64,000 bases of DNA from Azospirillaceae bacterium (GTDB taxonomy: Bacteria; Pseudomonadota; Alphaproteobacteria; Azospirillales; Azospirillaceae). The notes beneath the pieces were generated by a model. The model saw only the letters and a program-made list of their open reading frames with translations, was not told where the DNA came from and did not search any database. Positions within the stretch are counted from its first letter, which is position 1, and every line of letters starts with the position of its first letter. The position numbers and the translations under genes were made by a program. Of the stretch, positions 1 through 10,431 are shown piece by piece. The stretch is from NCBI GenBank assembly GCA_028283825.1, contig JAPWJW010000002.1:496001-560000 (forward strand), in the 5' to 3' direction.

Positions 1-2226
1 TATCCTGACGACGGCGCCGGCGGCACGCCGTCGATCCTGGCGGTGATGCAGGATGACGCGGTCGATATCATCAAGCTGACCCCGGCCCACCTGCAGCTGG
101 TCCGCGACGCCGGCATCCGCGCCCCGCGGGTGCGCAAGCTGATCCTGGGCGGCGAGGATCTGAAGACGGCGCTATGCGGTTCGCTGAACGGCGTTTTCCG
201 CGGCGACATCGAGATATTCAATGAATATGGGCCGACCGAGACCGTCGTCGGCTGCATGATCCATCGCTTCGACCCCGCCGCCGACCGGGGGGGCGCCGTC
301 CCCATCGGCCGGGCGATCAGCAACGTCCGGCTCTATGTGCTGGACAAGGCGCTGCGCCCGGTGCCCATCGGGGCGCGCGGCGAAATCTTCATCGCCGGGG
401 ACGGCGTGGCGCGCGGCTATCTGGGCCGGCCGGAGCTGACGGCCGAACGGTTCCTGCCCGACCCCTTCCATGCCGGCGCGCGGATGTATCGCACCGGTGA
501 CATCGCCCGCTGGCGCGCCTCCGGGGTGATGGAATATTTCGGCCGCGCCGACCACCAGGTCAAGATCCGGGGCGCGCGGGTGGAACTGGGCGAGGTCGAG
601 GCGGCGCTGGCCGCCCATCCCGCGGTCCGGGAATGCGTGGTCGATGTCGTCCATCACGGCAAGGTCGGGGGCGGGGACCGGCCGCTTGCGCCGACCTACT
701 GCGCGCGCTGCGGCCTGCCCTCCAACTATCCCGGCGTCAGCTTCGACGGGGAGGGCGTCTGCAACCATTGCCACAACTTCGAGTTCTATCGGGACAAGGC
801 CAAAGCCTATTTCCGCCCCATGGACGATCTCAGCGGGCTGTTCGCCGAGGCCAAGGCCCGCAGCCGCGGCGACTACGACTGCATGGTGCTGTACAGTGGC
901 GGCAAGGACAGCACCTATGTGCTGTGCCGGGTCGTGGCCATGGGCATGCGGGTCCTGGCCTTCACCCTGGACAACGGCTACCTGTCGGAGCAGGCGAAGG
1001 ACAACATCCGCCGCGTGGTGGGGGCGCTGGGCGTCGATCACGTCTTCGGCGAAACGCCGTTCATGCGCGATATCTTCGCCGAAAGCCTGCGGCGCAACAG
1101 CAACGTCTGCAACGGCTGTTTCAAGACCATCTACACCATCGCCATCAACCTGGCCAAGGAAAGGGGCATACCCTGCATCGTGACCGGCCTGTCACGGGGC
1201 CAGCTCTTTGAAACGCGGCTGGCCGAACTGTACCAGAACAACGTTTTCGATCCCGACACCATCGACCGCATGGTCCTGGATGCCCGGAAACTCTATCACC
1301 GGGCCGAGGACGTCATTTCCCGGTCGCTCGACGTCCGCATCTTCCAGGACGACGCGACCTTTGAGATCGTCAAGATCATCGATTTCTATCGCTATTGCGA
1401 CGTGGAGCTGGACGAGCTTTATCGCTTCATCAAGGCCCAGGTGCCCTGGAGCCGGCCCATGGACACCGGCCGGTCGACCAACTGCCTCATCAATGAGGTG
1501 GGCATCTATGTCCATAAGAAGACGCGGGGTTTCCACAACTATGCCCTGCCCTATTGCTGGGATGTCCGCCTGGGCCACAAGACGCGGGACGCGGCGCTGG
1601 CCGAACTGGACGAGCAGATCGACGTCGCCAACGTCACCAGCATCCTGACCGAGATCGGCTACGAATGGGATGGGGACGGGGATAAGACCGAGACGGCGCT
1701 CGTGGGTTACTACGTCGCCGACCGCCGCATCGCCCTGGAGGATCTGAAACATTTCCTGGCGCGGAAACTTCCGGCCTACATGGTGCCCAGCTATTTCATC
1801 CGGCTGGACGCCATCCCCCTGACCGCCAACGGCAAGGTGGATCGCAAGGCGCTGGTGCGGCCGATGGGCAAGCGCCCCGACCTGGCCCGGGAATTCGTGG
1901 CGCCGACGACGCCGGTGGAGGCGGAACTGTGCCGCATATGGTCCGGCCTCCTGGGGGTGGTCCAGGTCGGCATCCACGATAATTTCTTTGACCTGGGGGG
2001 GCATTCGTTGCTGGCGGCACGGGTGATCCTGCGCGTCGGCGCGACCTTCGGCGTCGATCTGTCGGTGCGCCAGCTGTTCGAGGTGCCGACCATTGCCGGG
2101 CTGGCCGCCGCCATCGCCGCCATGCCCAAGGGACCGGCGGGGCCGGCCCTGGTGCGGGGGGCCCGCGTCGCCCATCGCCCGGGGCCGCCGGCACCGCCGG
2201 ACGGTGCCGCCCCGCCCCCCCTGTGA
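1..2226 (+). CDS. NRPS module (5' partial): adenylation domain interrupted by a PP-loop ATPase domain, then a carrier domain
   Basis: The reading frame is open from base 1, so the gene starts upstream. In order it shows: the second half of an adenylation (A) domain with YGPTET (about nt 226-243), YRTGD (nt 487-501) and the A8 motif KIRGARVELGEVE (about nt 562-600); an inserted domain at about nt 655-1695; then the A9/A10 end (LPAYMVPSYF, NGKVDRKAL near nt 1828-1854); and a peptidyl-carrier domain with DLGGHS, whose phosphopantetheine Ser is at nt 2005-2007. The insert has a PP-loop SGGKDS (nt 895-912) and three CxxC pairs (nt 700-711, 760-771, 1108-1119). It resembles WbpG-type N-acetyl sugar amidotransferases, members of the adenine nucleotide alpha-hydrolase superfamily. 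The visible specificity positions (278 onward in GrsA numbering) read K-I-G-E-V-G, matching the asparagine code. There is no TE. The stop is four bases upstream-overlapping with a GTG of the next frame, so the genes are tightly coupled. Confidence 0.93.
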   Translation, partial: YPDDGAGGTPSILAVMQDDAVDIIKLTPAHLQLVRDAGIRAPRVRKLILGGEDLKTALCGSLNGVFRGDIEIFNEYGPTETVVGCMIHRFDPAADRGGAVPIGRAISNVRLYVLDKALRPVPIGARGEIFIAGDGVARGYLGRPELTAERFLPDPFHAGARMYRTGDIARWRASGVMEYFGRADHQVKIRGARVELGEVEAALAAHPAVRECVVDVVHHGKVGGGDRPLAPTYCARCGLPSNYPGVSFDGEGVCNHCHNFEFYRDKAKAYFRPMDDLSGLFAEAKARSRGDYDCMVLYSGGKDSTYVLCRVVAMGMRVLAFTLDNGYLSEQAKDNIRRVVGALGVDHVFGETPFMRDIFAESLRRNSNVCNGCFKTIYTIAINLAKERGIPCIVTGLSRGQLFETRLAELYQNNVFDPDTIDRMVLDARKLYHRAEDVISRSLDVRIFQDDATFEIVKIIDFYRYCDVELDELYRFIKAQVPWSRPMDTGRSTNCLINEVGIYVHKKTRGFHNYALPYCWDVRLGHKTRDAALAELDEQIDVANVTSILTEIGYEWDGDGDKTETALVGYYVADRRIALEDLKHFLARKLPAYMVPSYFIRLDAIPLTANGKVDRKALVRPMGKRPDLAREFVAPTTPVEAELCRIWSGLLGVVQVGIHDNFFDLGGHSLLAARVILRVGATFGVDLSVRQLFEVPTIAGLAAAIAAMPKGPAGPALVRGARVAHRPGPPAPPDGAAPPPL

Positions 2227-5678: not shown

Positions 5679-8600
5679 ATGAGCGTCATGACGACCGGCC
5701 CGGAGCTTACACCGGTGGAAAAGCGGCAGCTGCTGGAACGGCTGTTGCGCGAAAAGGCGGCCAAGCCCAAGCAATATCCGGTTTCGTTCGGGCAGGAACG
5801 GCTGTGGCTGGTGGATCTGCTGCAGCCGGGCCTGTCGGTCTACAACCTGGGGACGGGCATCCCCTTCGCGGGGACGGTGGACAGCGCCCTGTTGCAGCGG
5901 GCGGTGGATGAACTGGTCCGCCGGCATGAGGTGCTGCGCACCCGTTTCAGCGTGAGCGACGGTGTTCCGGTGCAAATCGTCGAACCCGGCATTACCGTGA
6001 CGGTGGCGGAGGTCGATCTGACGGTCCTGCCCGCCGCCCGCCGCCCGGACGAAGTGCGGCACCTGCAAACGCGGGAGATTCAGCGGCCCTTCGACCTGAC
6101 GCAGGCGCCACTGGTCCGGTTCCTGCTGCTGCGGATCGGTCCCAGCATGGCGCAACTGGTGTTCGTGCTGCACCATATCATTTCGGATGGCTGGTCCTTG
6201 GGCATATTGGCGCACGAGTTGGGCGTGCTCTACCAGGGGTTGGGACAAGGCCGCGACGTGCCGCTGCCGCCGCTGCCGCTTCAGTACGGCCGTTATGCCG
6301 AATGGCAGCGCCGGTGGCTGAAAGGCGAGACGTTCGATCGCCTGCTGTCCTATTGGACGACCCAGCTGCGCGGCCTGCCGGCCCTGATGGAGCTGCCGAC
6401 CGACCGGCCGCGGCCCCTGATGCAAAGCTACCGCGGCGCCAATTACAGTTTCGATCTGCCGGATGGGCTGTGCGAAACCTTGCGGGGCCTGGGCCGGCGC
6501 AGCGGCGCCACGCTCTACATGATCCTGCTGGCGGCGTTCCAGACCCTGCTGCTGCGCTACAGCGGACAGGAGGATGTGGCGGTCGGAACGCCCATCGCCA
6601 ACCGGACCGTCCGCGAGCACGAGGCCCTGATCGGCCTGTTCGCCAACACGCTGGTGATCCGCGCCGACCTTTCCGGCAACCCGCGCTGGCTCGACCTGCT
6701 GGCCCAGGTCCGCGAGGCGACGCTGGAGGCGCAGGCGCATCAGGACCTGCCTTTCGAACGGCTGGTGGAGGCGCTGCAGCCGGCCCGCCACCTGGGCTAT
6801 CATCCGCTGTTCCAGGTCATGTTCGCCTATCAGAACATCCCGGCGCTGGACGCGCTGGCCTCATCGGGGGACGAACCCGACGCGGCGGTCATGACCGGCA
6901 CGACCCGGTTCGACCTGTCGATGTTCCTGCAGGACCATGACAAGGGCCTGCGTGGCACCCTGGAATACAGCACCGATCTTTTCGACCAGGACCGCATCGT
7001 CCGCATGGTGGGCCATTTCCGGACCCTGCTGTCGGCCATTGCCGAGGCGCCCCAACGGCGGTTGTGGGAGCTGCCGCTGCTGACCGCGGCGGAACGGCAC
7101 CTGCTGGCGGGGTGGAACGCGACCACGGCCGCTTTCCCGCCTGAGCCGGCGATGCCGCTGCTGTTCGAGCGGCAGGCGGTGGCCCGGCCCGACGCCGTGG
7201 CGGTGACGTGTGGCGCGGTGCAGTGCCGCTATGGCGAACTGAACCGCCGCGCCAACCAACTGGCGCATTACCTGATCGGGCTGGGGGTGGGGCCGGATAC
7301 GCTGGTCGCCCTTTGCATCGACCGTTCCGTCGAGATGGTGGTGGGGGTGCTGGCGGTCCTCAAGGCCGGCGGTGCCTACCTGCCGCTGGATCCCGACTAT
7401 CCGGTGGATCGCCTGCGCTTCATGCTCACCGACGGGCGGGTGCCGCTGTTGCTGAGCGGTCCCGACCGGCCGGCGGCGTTCGCGCCCGTCGGCACCACGG
7501 TGATCCGGCTGACGGCGGATGCGCCGATCCTGGCCCGCCAGCCGGAGGACGATCCCATGGTCGCCGTCGATCCGGCCCGGGCCGCCTATGTCATCTACAC
7601 CTCGGGCTCGACCGGTGTACCCAAGGGGGTGCAGGTGTCCCGCGGGGCGCTGTCCAACCTGCTCCACGCCCTGCGGCAGAGCCTGCAGCCGACGCAGGAG
7701 GGCCGTTGGCTGGCCTTGACGACCCTGTCGTTCGACATCGCCGCCATGGAGATCTTCCTGCCGTTGATGGTGGGGGCGGAACTGGTCGTCGCCGGCCGCG
7801 AGGCGGCCCTGGACGGCGAGACGCTGGCGCGGACGCTGGCCGCGACCGACATCACCTTCATGCAGGCGACACCGGTGACCTGGCGGCGGCTGATCGAAAC
7901 CGGTTGGCGCGGCGACAAGCGCATGACGCTGATCAGTGGCGGGGAACACCTGCCGCAGGACCTGGCCGACCGGCTGACGGGGGACGGCGCCACCTGCTGG
8001 AACCTGTACGGTCCCACCGAGGCCACCATTTATGCCACGGGCGACCGGCTGGCCGGGGCCGGCGCGCCGGTGACGATCGGCCGGCCCATCGCCAATCTGC
8101 AGGCCCATGTGCTGGATCGCCATCTCAACCAGGTGCCGCCGGGCGTGCCGGGCGACCTTTACCTGGGCGGTGCCGGCCTTGCCCAAGGTTATCTCAACCG
8201 CCCCGATGCCACCGCCGACCGGTTTGTGCCGGACCATCTCGGTACCGTTCCCGGCGGGCGGCTCTATCGTACCGGCGACGTGGTCCGGCTGCTGGCCGAC
8301 GGCCGGATCGACTATCTGGGTCGCAGCGATTTCCAGGTCAAGATCCGCGGCTTCCGCATTGAGCCAGGTGAGATCGAGGCGGTGCTGCGACAGCATCCGG
8401 CGGTGCGCCAGGCGGCGGTGATCGCCCGCCGGGATGGCGCCGGCCAACCGGCCGGCCCCTATCTGGTCGCTTACGTCGTGGCGGAAGGCGCACGGCCCCG
8501 CGCCACCGCGCTCTACGATCATTTGCGAACCCGGTTGCCCGACTACATGCTGCCCACGGCCCTGGTCTGGCTCGATGCCCTGCCGCAGACGCCCAATGGC

Positions 8601-8996
8601 AAGATTGACCGCCGGGCCTTGCCGGCGCCGGACCTGAACCGGTCCCGTGACGAGGGCGACTTCACGGCGCCTGCCGGGCCGGTTGAGGAGATCGTGGCCG
8701 CCGCCTGGATGGACGTGCTGAACCTCGACCAGATCGATGCGCGTGATGATTTCTTCTCGCTGGGCGGTCATTCGCTGACGGCAGCCCGGGTGATGCACCA
8801 GCTCTGCGACCTGCTGGGCCTGGACCTGCCGCTCTTGCTGTTGTTCAAGGCCCCCTCGGTCGGCGGCTTGAGCCGGGAACTGCTGAACCATCCGGAGCTT
8901 GGATCAAGCGTGGCCGCCGCGGCTGCCGCCACCTTGGCCGGGCTGGAAGAGATCGAGGCCGCCGCCCGCCTGGACGCGGAGGGATTACCGACCTGA
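5679..8996 (+). CDS. NRPS, one C-A-PCP module (glycine/alanine-like specificity), no thioesterase
   Basis: A protein of 1105 residues. The condensation domain has the complete HHIISDG motif (from nt 6171). The A domain has YTSGSTGVPKG, FDIAAMEIF, YGPTEA, YRTGD, KIRGFRIEPGEIE and NGKIDRRAL. The carrier has SLGGHS with its Ser at nt 8772-8774. Specificity residues read by eye as D-I-M-Q-I-G-L-I-Y, nearest to the DILQLGLIW glycine-type code; confidence in that is low. It ends about 60 residues after the carrier with no thioesterase, reductase or terminal condensation domain, so peptide release must use something outside the visible part. Start ATG 5679 follows AAAGGTG. It belongs to the same operon as the two upstream NRPS genes. 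Confidence 0.95.
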   Translation: MSVMTTGPELTPVEKRQLLERLLREKAAKPKQYPVSFGQERLWLVDLLQPGLSVYNLGTGIPFAGTVDSALLQRAVDELVRRHEVLRTRFSVSDGVPVQIVEPGITVTVAEVDLTVLPAARRPDEVRHLQTREIQRPFDLTQAPLVRFLLLRIGPSMAQLVFVLHHIISDGWSLGILAHELGVLYQGLGQGRDVPLPPLPLQYGRYAEWQRRWLKGETFDRLLSYWTTQLRGLPALMELPTDRPRPLMQSYRGANYSFDLPDGLCETLRGLGRRSGATLYMILLAAFQTLLLRYSGQEDVAVGTPIANRTVREHEALIGLFANTLVIRADLSGNPRWLDLLAQVREATLEAQAHQDLPFERLVEALQPARHLGYHPLFQVMFAYQNIPALDALASSGDEPDAAVMTGTTRFDLSMFLQDHDKGLRGTLEYSTDLFDQDRIVRMVGHFRTLLSAIAEAPQRRLWELPLLTAAERHLLAGWNATTAAFPPEPAMPLLFERQAVARPDAVAVTCGAVQCRYGELNRRANQLAHYLIGLGVGPDTLVALCIDRSVEMVVGVLAVLKAGGAYLPLDPDYPVDRLRFMLTDGRVPLLLSGPDRPAAFAPVGTTVIRLTADAPILARQPEDDPMVAVDPARAAYVIYTSGSTGVPKGVQVSRGALSNLLHALRQSLQPTQEGRWLALTTLSFDIAAMEIFLPLMVGAELVVAGREAALDGETLARTLAATDITFMQATPVTWRRLIETGWRGDKRMTLISGGEHLPQDLADRLTGDGATCWNLYGPTEATIYATGDRLAGAGAPVTIGRPIANLQAHVLDRHLNQVPPGVPGDLYLGGAGLAQGYLNRPDATADRFVPDHLGTVPGGRLYRTGDVVRLLADGRIDYLGRSDFQVKIRGFRIEPGEIEAVLRQHPAVRQAAVIARRDGAGQPAGPYLVAYVVAEGARPRATALYDHLRTRLPDYMLPTALVWLDALPQTPNGKIDRRALPAPDLNRSRDEGDFTAPAGPVEEIVAAAWMDVLNLDQIDARDDFFSLGGHSLTAARVMHQLCDLLGLDLPLLLLFKAPSVGGLSRELLNHPELGSSVAAAAAATLAGLEEIEAAARLDAEGLPT

Positions 8997-9040
8997 AACG
9001 TTCGTGTTGCCGAAACCTGATGAGACGGAGGAGGAACAGC

Positions 9041-9724
9041 ATGTCGACCAAGAGCGAGGATCGGCCGGAAAAAAGCGATGAGGGCCGTCGCACGGCGGCC
9101 AGGACCGCCACGGCCACCCCCTCCGGGCCTTCACCGGCGACGGCCGACGCCAATGCCGATGCCGAGGCGGCACCCAGCCTGGCCAGCTCATTATGCGCGG
9201 TCCGGCGCGCCATATGCCTGGCCAGCCACGAGGCGGAACTGGCGGTTTCACAGGCCTGGTGGCGTGCCTATGCCGAACTGGGCGCCAGCCAGCAGCGCAT
9301 CGCCTGGGACGCAAGCTTCAGCCGCAACAGTGCCTATCAGGCCTGGCTTGCCGCGGCGCAAACCGCCAGCCAGCGTAATGATGGCCAGCAGTTGGCCGCC
9401 GCCCATGAGACCTACTACCGTACCTTGGAAACGGCGGCCAAGGTTGAGCGGCAGGACTGGGATGCGGCGCAGAACAATTACTGCAAGGCTCTGGAGGCCG
9501 CCAACGATGCCCGTGCCGCCGCGGTCGATAAGGCGCTGGCGGCCTATCTCGGGGACCTTCGGGACGTGTGGCAGGGCGCCGACCTGAGTGCCAGGGGCGT
9601 GTCCATCCTGACGCAGCTGGCCCAGGAAATCGGCTATGCCGCTCAACTCGCCCAAGCTCAAGGGTGGGTCCCCGGACCCACCGGCACGGCCACCCACGGC
9701 CCATCCGTGAGCGCCGGCAGATGA
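9041..9724 (+). CDS. Alanine-rich helical protein of unknown function, end of NRPS operon
   Basis: A 227-residue protein I do not recognise. Start ATG 9041 has GGAGGAGG seven bases upstream, better than the in-frame ATG at 9020. The first 45 residues are polar and look disordered (Lys/Glu/Thr/Ala-rich). The rest is a long run of Ala-, Gln- and aromatic-rich heptad-like sequence (AWWRAYAEL, AYQAWLAAAQT, YYRTLETAAKVE) that should form amphipathic helices or a coiled coil. There is no signal peptide or transmembrane segment. It starts 44 bases after the last NRPS gene on the same strand, so it is probably co-transcribed. A scaffolding or accessory role is only a guess. Confidence 0.75.
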   Translation: MSTKSEDRPEKSDEGRRTAARTATATPSGPSPATADANADAEAAPSLASSLCAVRRAICLASHEAELAVSQAWWRAYAELGASQQRIAWDASFSRNSAYQAWLAAAQTASQRNDGQQLAAAHETYYRTLETAAKVERQDWDAAQNNYCKALEAANDARAAAVDKALAAYLGDLRDVWQGADLSARGVSILTQLAQEIGYAAQLAQAQGWVPGPTGTATHGPSVSAGR

Positions 9725-9930: not shown

Positions 9931-10431
9931 ATGAGCCTTGCCCGCCGCCATCCCGTCCGGGGACCTGCCCGGAACCGGCACCGCCTGTCGCGGTGGGCGT
10001 GGCTGTTGGTGGTCGCGTTGTTCCTGCGGGGCCTGGTGCCGGTGGGCTATATGCCCAATCCGGCCTCGGGCGAACCGGGCGCCGGGGCCATCATGCTGTG
10101 CGACAGCGTGCACGACCTGCTGTCGGTGATGACCGACCCGATGATGGCCGACCCGGCGCTGGCCAAGCCTGGGATGATCCAGGCGATGATGGCGGATCCC
10201 TGGATGCACCATCATCACGAGGGCGGCGGCCATGCCGGGCATACGGTCGATGCGCCCTGCGTCTTCGCCGCCGTGGCCGCCTTGGCGGCCGTGCTGCTGG
10301 CCGTCATCCTCATCCTGTCGCCGGAATACCGCGCGGTCCGCTGGACGCCCGCGCCGGCAGCCCCCCGGCGGTATCTGCGGCCCCCCGGCACCCGGCTGGC
10401 CCGGGGCCCGCCATCCCTTCTCCTGAGCTGA
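9931..10431 (+). CDS. DUF2946 family membrane protein
   Basis: A 166-residue protein with the layout typical of DUF2946: an N-terminal membrane helix with the LRGLVPVGYMP signature, a CDSVHD segment, a Met/His-rich stretch (DPMMAD, MMADPWMHHHHEGGGHAGH), then a Cys and a second hydrophobic helix (CVFAAVAALAAVLLAV). ATG 9931 is chosen because the hydrophobic N-terminus begins there; upstream in-frame codons read through the hairpin. DUF2946 genes are commonly found beside TonB receptors and PepSY proteins, as here. The His/Met content suggests contact with a metal, probably copper or iron, but the family's function is not established. Confidence 0.8.
   Translation: MSLARRHPVRGPARNRHRLSRWAWLLVVALFLRGLVPVGYMPNPASGEPGAGAIMLCDSVHDLLSVMTDPMMADPALAKPGMIQAMMADPWMHHHHEGGGHAGHTVDAPCVFAAVAALAAVLLAVILILSPEYRAVRWTPAPAAPRRYLRPPGTRLARGPPSLLLS

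What the first reader, a model, noticed from the sequence alone, without database searches (positions are those of the whole stretch)
1..2226. Adenylation domain interrupted by a PP-loop, Cys-rich amidotransferase-like domain
A roughly 345-residue domain with SGGKDS and three CxxC pairs lies between A8 and A9 of an NRPS adenylation domain, the same slot known for methyltransferase insertions. The insert resembles WbpG/AANH enzymes, which activate a carbonyl with ATP for nitrogen or sulfur transfer. The visible specificity residues K-I-G-E-V-G match an asparagine code, so the insert could act on the Asn/Asp side chain (amidation, amidine or thioamide formation) while the residue is bound. I do not know a characterised example.
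Basis: partly seen in the sequence, partly recalled or inferred. Interest (0 to 1): 0.88.

Follow-up and report, generated by a model that had tools for sequence, protein, structure and literature searches.

The report
Nitrile-forming domain inside peptide-making enzyme
A peptide-building enzyme that probably selects asparagine carries, spliced into its selecting domain, a second ATP-using domain of a kind already shown in an antibiotic pathway to turn bound asparagine into a nitrile; this is a new member, and its cysteine pattern suggests an untested iron-sulfur mechanism.

Summary
Window 1-2226 is the 3' part of an intact 1218-aa NRPS gene: half C domain, A core, about 345-aa insert, rest of A, T. 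The insert lies in frame between motifs A8 and A9, and the A code is DLTKIGEVGK, read as asparagine. But a characterised example exists: the AMDH (aminomutase/amide dehydratase) domain of CysH (cystobactamid) and Alb04 (albicidin; 57% identity to the X. albilineans copy). [quoted passage not shown] So nitrile (or iso-Asn) formation, not amidation, amidine or thioamide, is the best reading. Added here: loci with 12 phylum labels; besides a zinc tetracysteine shared with sugar amidotransferases, three more cysteines (CxxC + C) in 94 of 94 AMDH rows against 1 of 32 amidotransferases (80 rows were found with patterns one of which holds the CxxC, 13 were not). The CxxC aligns with that of [4Fe-4S] LarE and TtcA. 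This offers a testable cofactor for an enzyme reported brown and of unknown mechanism. The product of the window's assembly line is unknown.

The parts
1..648 (+). A-domain core, 3' part, and start of the A subdomain (gene begins 1431 bp upstream of the window); motif A8 at 556-585
   Evidence: PF00501 at P0001 12-141; complete gene; module alignment
649..1680 (+). AMDH domain (amide dehydratase / aminomutase, PP-loop) inserted in the A domain; edges approximate
   Evidence: TIGR03573 139.5-142.6 bits, below its 203.2 cut-off; 80 related loci at 55-65% identity; 57% to the only match in an X. albilineans genome; AF2 pLDDT 89.7
700..771 (+). Tetracysteine CxxC...CxxC (Cys at 700, 709, 760, 769), probable structural zinc
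   Evidence: 93-94 of 94 AMDH rows and 31-32 of 32 sugar amidotransferases; zinc in 8wex (PMC10607449, passages)
895..912 (+). PP-loop SGGKDS
   Evidence: invariant in 81 of 81 rows
1108..1119 (+). CNGC, first two cysteines of the candidate [4Fe-4S] triad
   Evidence: 94 of 94 AMDH rows, 1 of 32 amidotransferases (see bias in the full report); aligned with CxxC of 8cnz LarE and of E. coli TtcA
1483..1485 (+). Third cysteine of the candidate triad (RSTNC)
   Evidence: 94 of 94 AMDH rows, 1 of 32 amidotransferases; its equivalence to the third ligand of TtcA/NcsA is inference, hhalign did not align it
1681..1836 (+). Rest of the A subdomain with A9 and A10 (NGKVDR)
   Evidence: PF13193 at P0001 563-612, model 25-76; A10 Lys in 80 of 81 rows
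1924..2115 (+). Thiolation (T) domain, LGGHS
   Evidence: PF00550
2223..5660 (+). NRPS module 2, C-A-T, code DVQFIAHLAK (proline-like, from recall)
5679..8996 (+). NRPS module 3, C-A-T, code DIMQIGLIYK (glycine-like, from recall); no thioesterase domain in the Pfam scan
10000..10428 (+). DUF2946 protein, His-rich
   Evidence: PF11162 27.4 bits
10431..12938 (+). TonB-dependent receptor
   Evidence: PF00593, PF07715
12958..14400 (+). PepSY-TM protein
   Evidence: PF03929 222.6 bits

Best explanation
The insert is an AMDH domain working in cis inside an asparagine module. The A domain adenylates L-Asn and loads it on the T domain of the same protein. The AMDH PP-loop then uses ATP to activate the oxygen of the side-chain carboxamide (most likely as an AMP-imidate, as proposed for other ATP-dependent nitrile synthetases), and loss of AMP leaves beta-cyano-L-alanyl-S-T, which the following modules extend. 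Iso-asparagine could be a second product. Shown by sequence here: the fused domains, the code, intact motifs, homology to the Alb04 domain. Shown by others for CysH: dehydration of T-bound Asn that depends on the domain. Inferred: the same reaction in this protein, the adenylated intermediate, and a [4Fe-4S] cluster on C155, C158 and C280 of the domain.
For: 57% identity to the single match in an X. albilineans genome, the albicidin producer; CysH reconstitution in PMC7966384 (passages); albicidin module in PMC8949500 (passages). A code DLTKIGEVGK in 62 of 81 rows; 14 further complete rows differ at one or two positions, 5 rows have gaps. SGGKDS invariant in 81 of 81. Weak hits to QueC (Pfam 25.1 bits; NCBIfam 24.8 bits) and to PDB nitrile synthetase 9leh (E 0.064). 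Nearest solved fold the sugar amidotransferase 8wex; TtuA, LarE and NcsA also in the first 50 rows.
Against: No product or assay for this gene. The CysH sequence was not in hand. The best-scoring named family for the insert is an amidotransferase. Fold similarity fits sulfur transferases as well. The rows come from searches with this domain, so agreement of code and motifs partly reflects selection.
Confidence: 0.78

Rival explanations
1. Aminomutase reading: the domain mainly turns T-bound Asn (perhaps first oxidised in trans) into iso-asparagine, with nitrile as side product or intermediate, as in cystobactamid.
For: CysH does both, depending on the hydroxylase CysJ. A haem-oxygenase-like/TenA-type oxidase gene lies two genes upstream.
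Against: The reported switch involves the alpha-ketoglutarate-dependent oxygenase CysJ; the oxidase here is of another kind (CADD/BesC relatives). The authors state that no albicidin with iso-Asn has been identified.
Confidence: 0.12
2. Thioamide reading: the three extra cysteines carry a [4Fe-4S] cluster that delivers sulfur to the activated side-chain amide, giving beta-thioasparagine, as TtuA/NcsA do for tRNA uridine.
For: Cys pattern and folds of TtuA, NcsA, LarE; LarE model TIGR00268 hits the domain, 33.2 bits, below its cut-off of 150.
Against: The homologous CysH lost 18 Da. Sulfur-carrier or desulfurase genes near the gene were not searched for.
Confidence: 0.05
3. Amidine or amidation reading (WbpG-like): ammonia is ligated to the activated amide to give beta-amidinoalanine.
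For: Best named family is N-acetyl sugar amidotransferase TIGR03573; nearest solved fold 8wex.
Against: Score below the family cut-off; no HisH/HisF2 match in the ORFs of the 80 loci, window or 18 kb upstream. Of three plasmid amidotransferase loci looked at, two have HisH or HisH and HisF2 beside them; the third shows neither, so their absence is not decisive.
Confidence: 0.04

Closest known systems
AMDH domain of CysH (cystobactamid), PMC7966384
   Same: PP-loop domain inserted in an Asn-specific A domain, SGGKD motif; many homologues reported there
   Different: CysH is a stand-alone module feeding the line through CysB; here two more modules follow in the operon, and a free C domain and a half C domain precede. 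CysH sequence not compared directly.
Alb04/AlbIV of albicidin (X. albilineans; L078, L138)
   Same: 57% identity over the domain, same slot, same seven cysteines and PP-loop
   Different: A-AMDH-T frame of 972 aa without C; K for R in GLSRGQ. In-line modules are in fact common: 62 of 80 loci have an HHxxxD motif upstream in the same frame (motif only).
N-acetyl sugar amidotransferases WbpG/WbuX/LpNASAT (TIGR03573, 8wex)
   Same: PP-loop, zinc tetracysteine, overall fold
   Different: Free proteins; 31 of 32 lack the CxxC + C triad
[4Fe-4S] PP-loop enzymes TtcA, TtuA, NcsA, LarE
   Same: CxxC at the same place after the PP-loop (LarE, TtcA); fold of TtuA, NcsA, LarE
   Different: They move sulfur to tRNA or a cofactor; overall similarity low; third Cys not aligned by the tool
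Methyltransferase-interrupted A domains (TioS, KtzH)
   Same: Insertion between a8 and a9 (PMC11355689, passages)
   Different: Unrelated inserted domain and reaction

Membership tests
AMDH domain (CysH/Alb04) | Homologous to the Alb04 domain | tested here: met
   57% identity to the one match in an X. albilineans genome
AMDH domain (CysH/Alb04) | Inserted in an A domain with Asn specificity code | tested here: met
   DLTKIGEVGK; A10 after the insert; meaning of the code from recall
AMDH domain (CysH/Alb04) | SGGKD ATP-binding motif | tested here: met
AMDH domain (CysH/Alb04) | Dehydration or aminomutation of T-bound Asn | not testable with these tools
   Needs protein mass spectrometry
AMDH domain (CysH/Alb04) | Similarity to CysH itself and its seven core motifs | not tested
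   CysH sequence and the paper's supplement were not in hand; of 396 genomes searched, 8 had a match, none in a CysH-sized frame
Stand-alone trans-acting A-AMDH-T module | No C domain, separate from the assembly line | tested here: not met
   Half C domain at the N-terminus and two modules downstream in the same operon
N-acetyl sugar amidotransferase TIGR03573 | Score over curated cut-off 203.2 bits | tested here: not met
   139.5-142.6 bits
N-acetyl sugar amidotransferase TIGR03573 | Zinc tetracysteine and PP-loop | tested here: met
[4Fe-4S] PP-loop enzymes (TtuA/NcsA/TtcA/LarE) | Three cysteines ligating a cluster | tested here: inconclusive
   Three conserved Cys, CxxC aligned; third Cys and cluster not shown; model coordinates not available

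The most novel reading that the evidence does not exclude
AMDH domains are [4Fe-4S]-dependent PP-loop amide dehydratases: a cluster held by only three cysteines, with one open iron, acts as Lewis acid on the activated Asn carboxamide (giving nitrile or iso-Asn). This would explain the brown CysH protein, whose authors looked for and did not find a CxxCxxxC motif, and would put an Fe-S enzyme inside an NRPS A domain; I know of no other case, from recall, no search made.
Probability: 0.45. Interest if true: 0.75.

Novelty: new member of a known kind. Interest (0 to 1): 0.5.

Why it matters
AMDH is an NRPS-embedded way to make a nitrile from asparagine, and its mechanism was left open by its discoverers. 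A conserved cysteine triad gives a direct mutational and spectroscopic test. The related clusters (12 phylum labels; 43 of 80 loci with a HupE-type or TonB-like gene within 10 kb) point to unknown metabolites with a nitrile or iso-Asn.

Tried and rejected
Assembly artefact or frame break: rejected. Membership in TIGR03573: rejected on score. pABA line like albicidin: module 2 and 3 codes begin with D and do not suggest pABA (code meanings from recall). A first comparison with amidotransferases chose frames by motif, left out 4 of 32 loci and probably used wrong frames for L118 and L124; one search repeats it with frames chosen by similarity and supersedes its counts. Measuring the AMDH end by a short motif left 7 of 34 rows unmeasured and caught an earlier match in 9 of the other 27; lengths are not used. 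The second AF2 model (A core truncated, 34 rows, pLDDT 78.7, pTM 0.57) only agrees with an insertion between two strands (E209-219 and E564-573) with low-confidence linkers. A search for a CysH-like copy in 396 genomes of the phylum of L045 gave 8 genomes with a match, none in a frame of about 1000 aa. The only PF01171 match in the own genome looks like TilS by eye, so E. coli TtcA was used instead. Lundy et al. 2020 on interrupted A domains is not held and was not seen, so whether it lists this insert is unknown.

Full report
OBSERVATION. Window 1-2226 is open in frame. The window is G000:C2:496001-560000, and the upstream stretch shows the whole gene, 1218 aa: the C-terminal half of a condensation domain (PF00668 positions 189-456 at residues 13-247), AMP-binding, insert, AMP-binding_C from position 25, PP-binding. 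Against modules 2 and 3 of the same operon the insert is an addition between A8 and A9. Third-position GC is even across the edges; total GC is lower in the insert.

IDENTITY. TIGR03573 (sugar amidotransferase) matches the insert over positions 2-316 of 344, below its cut-off. A scan of genome contigs (one genome for each of 84,980 species) gave 173 stretches with one of six peptide patterns; 168 encode a relative and the best 80 were kept. In these 80 the domain lies in a larger open frame (552 aa or more), at 55-65% identity. One is Xanthomonas albilineans, whose genome gives one match. A review describes albicidin's alb04 as an Asn-activating module with a 342-aa SGGKD-bearing alpha-ANH-like stretch, placed between A and T (PMC8949500, passages); in the X. 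albilineans row the A10 motif follows the domain, so it too lies inside the A domain. The cystobactamid paper names the domain AMDH, shows that CysH turns bound L-Asn into beta-cyanoalanine (+114 to +96) and that removing the domain stops this, shows its role in iso-Asn formation, and states that homologues are all inserted in Asn-specific A domains (PMC7966384, passages). Three papers hold both 'AMDH' and 'cystobactamid', one of them a correction; one holds 'nonribosomal' with 'amide dehydratase'; none holds adenylation domain, amidotransferase, nonribosomal and PP-loop together.

SUBSTRATE. The code positions read DLTKIGEVGK in 62 of 81 rows, window included; 14 further complete rows differ at one or two positions; 5 rows have gaps, two of them at all nine core positions. 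That this code means Asn is from recall and from PMC7966384's statement on its own set.

CYSTEINES. One search compares 94 AMDH rows (81 of A1; L093, L095, L099, L100; and nine more: L094, L139-L144, L146 and the free-standing relative L145) with 32 sugar amidotransferase loci; 124 of the 126 rows differ from each other. The tetracysteine is kept in 93-94 of 94 and 31-32 of 32. The further CxxC and Cys (domain residues 155, 158, 280) are kept in 94 of 94 and in 1 of 32 (L111, the exception). Bias: one of the six patterns was NVCNGCFK and another CNHCHNFE, so these cysteines are partly selected for in the 80 loci; residue 280 and SGGKDS are in no pattern. The 13 added rows came from whole-domain searches and also carry them, but four (L093, L095, L099, L100) were cut out by a CNGCF motif, by which L094 (CDGCF) was first missed. 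The tetracysteine binds zinc in the Legionella amidotransferase (PMC10607449, passages). The extra CxxC aligns with a CxxC of LarE 8cnz (a [4Fe-4S] structure by its title, ligand identity recalled) and of E. coli TtcA (hhalign probability 76.5%). PMC10067955 (passages) gives three-Cys clusters for NcsA and the TtcA-TtuA family, with an open iron as Lewis acid. The third Cys was not aligned by the tool, so the triad is an inference. AF2 gives pLDDT 89.7 for the domain; the best PDB match is 8wex, and YcfA, TtuA, LarE and NcsA are among the first 50 rows, with TilS and carbapenam synthetase. The discoverers saw a dark brown CysH, suspected metal, and found no CxxCxxxC.

MECHANISM. ATP-dependent nitrile formation through an AMP-imidate is proposed for PesC and, by that paper's account, in other contexts such as auranthine and preQ0 (PMC13060819, passages). 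I infer the same for AMDH, with or without help from a cluster.

FAMILY AND CONTEXT. In a quick tree the AMDH rows are one side of a branch against the amidotransferases (SH-aLRT 92, with long branches flagged; 99 in the flawed first run). Free-standing relatives like L145 were barely sampled, so the true sister group is open. The 80 loci carry 12 phylum labels. In flanks of up to 10 kb, often cut by contig ends, 40 of 80 loci have an acyl-CoA dehydrogenase, 50 a free A-type ligase (by length and motif; 28 have both), 39 a HupE/UreJ protein, 24 a TonB-like receptor, 22 a PPTase, 21 an ornithine cyclodeaminase (one member of each class scanned by Pfam; for the free ligase, the one of the Roseovarius locus). 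Free ligase, dehydrogenase and free carrier together on a Roseovarius plasmid recall the prolyl-to-pyrrolyl system of pyoluteorin-type pathways (recall). The window's cluster is different: single queries for acyl-CoA dehydrogenase, HupE, ornithine cyclodeaminase, PPTase and thioesterase found nothing in the window or 18 kb upstream. It has a haem-oxygenase-like gene (best named family CADD, 45 bits, cut-off 200; PDB BesC 1.9e-5 and CADD 3.2e-5), a free C domain, the AMDH module, two C-A-T modules, then DUF2946, TonB receptor and PepSY-TM genes. A metal-related product is a guess from these neighbours. Of 385 genomes of its class searched, 4 have the domain at E 1e-60, the window's own included; the four other genomes listed from its family do not.

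VERDICT. Real, intact, and a new in-line member of a published domain family. The unsolved point that these data sharpen is the cofactor and chemistry.

Noticed in passing
L145 1453-2445 (-): A free-standing 331-aa relative of the AMDH domain (33-40% identity) with the same seven cysteines and SGGKDS; by eye its neighbours include an acyl carrier protein and an asparagine-synthase-like gene, perhaps an AMDH-like system outside NRPS.
   Followed up: partly
L011-L090 flanks: AMDH genes of many phyla share neighbours: free A-type ligase, acyl-CoA dehydrogenase, ornithine cyclodeaminase, HupE/UreJ protein, TonB receptor or PPTase; perhaps one widespread uncharacterised cluster family.
   Followed up: partly
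L034, L035, L038, L039, L041, L049: Rhizobial and Microvirga mini-cluster: PPTase, thioesterase (with TubC_N docking domain in L034), A-AMDH-A-T without C, acyl-CoA dehydrogenase.
   Followed up: no
L100 12062-16112: Streptomyces plasmid: the NRPS is annotated as two genes that meet just before the AMDH domain (39.5% identity), beside asnB; the A domain may be naturally split at the insertion edge.
   Followed up: no
L010 3934-5559 and 5570-9226: Free-standing complete C domain directly before a protein that begins with only the C-terminal half of a C domain: the module's C domain seems replaced in trans.
   Followed up: partly
L009 13853-14641: Haem-oxygenase-like/TenA-type gene (CADD family below cut-off, BesC 7twa E 1.9e-5) upstream of the NRPS genes; no match at 1e-5 in ORFs of the 80 loci.
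   Followed up: partly
L111 1465-2640 (-): An amidotransferase-like protein that does have the CxxC + C triad, the one exception among 32.
   Followed up: no
9020-9724: 234-aa ORF after module 3 without any Pfam match.
   Followed up: no
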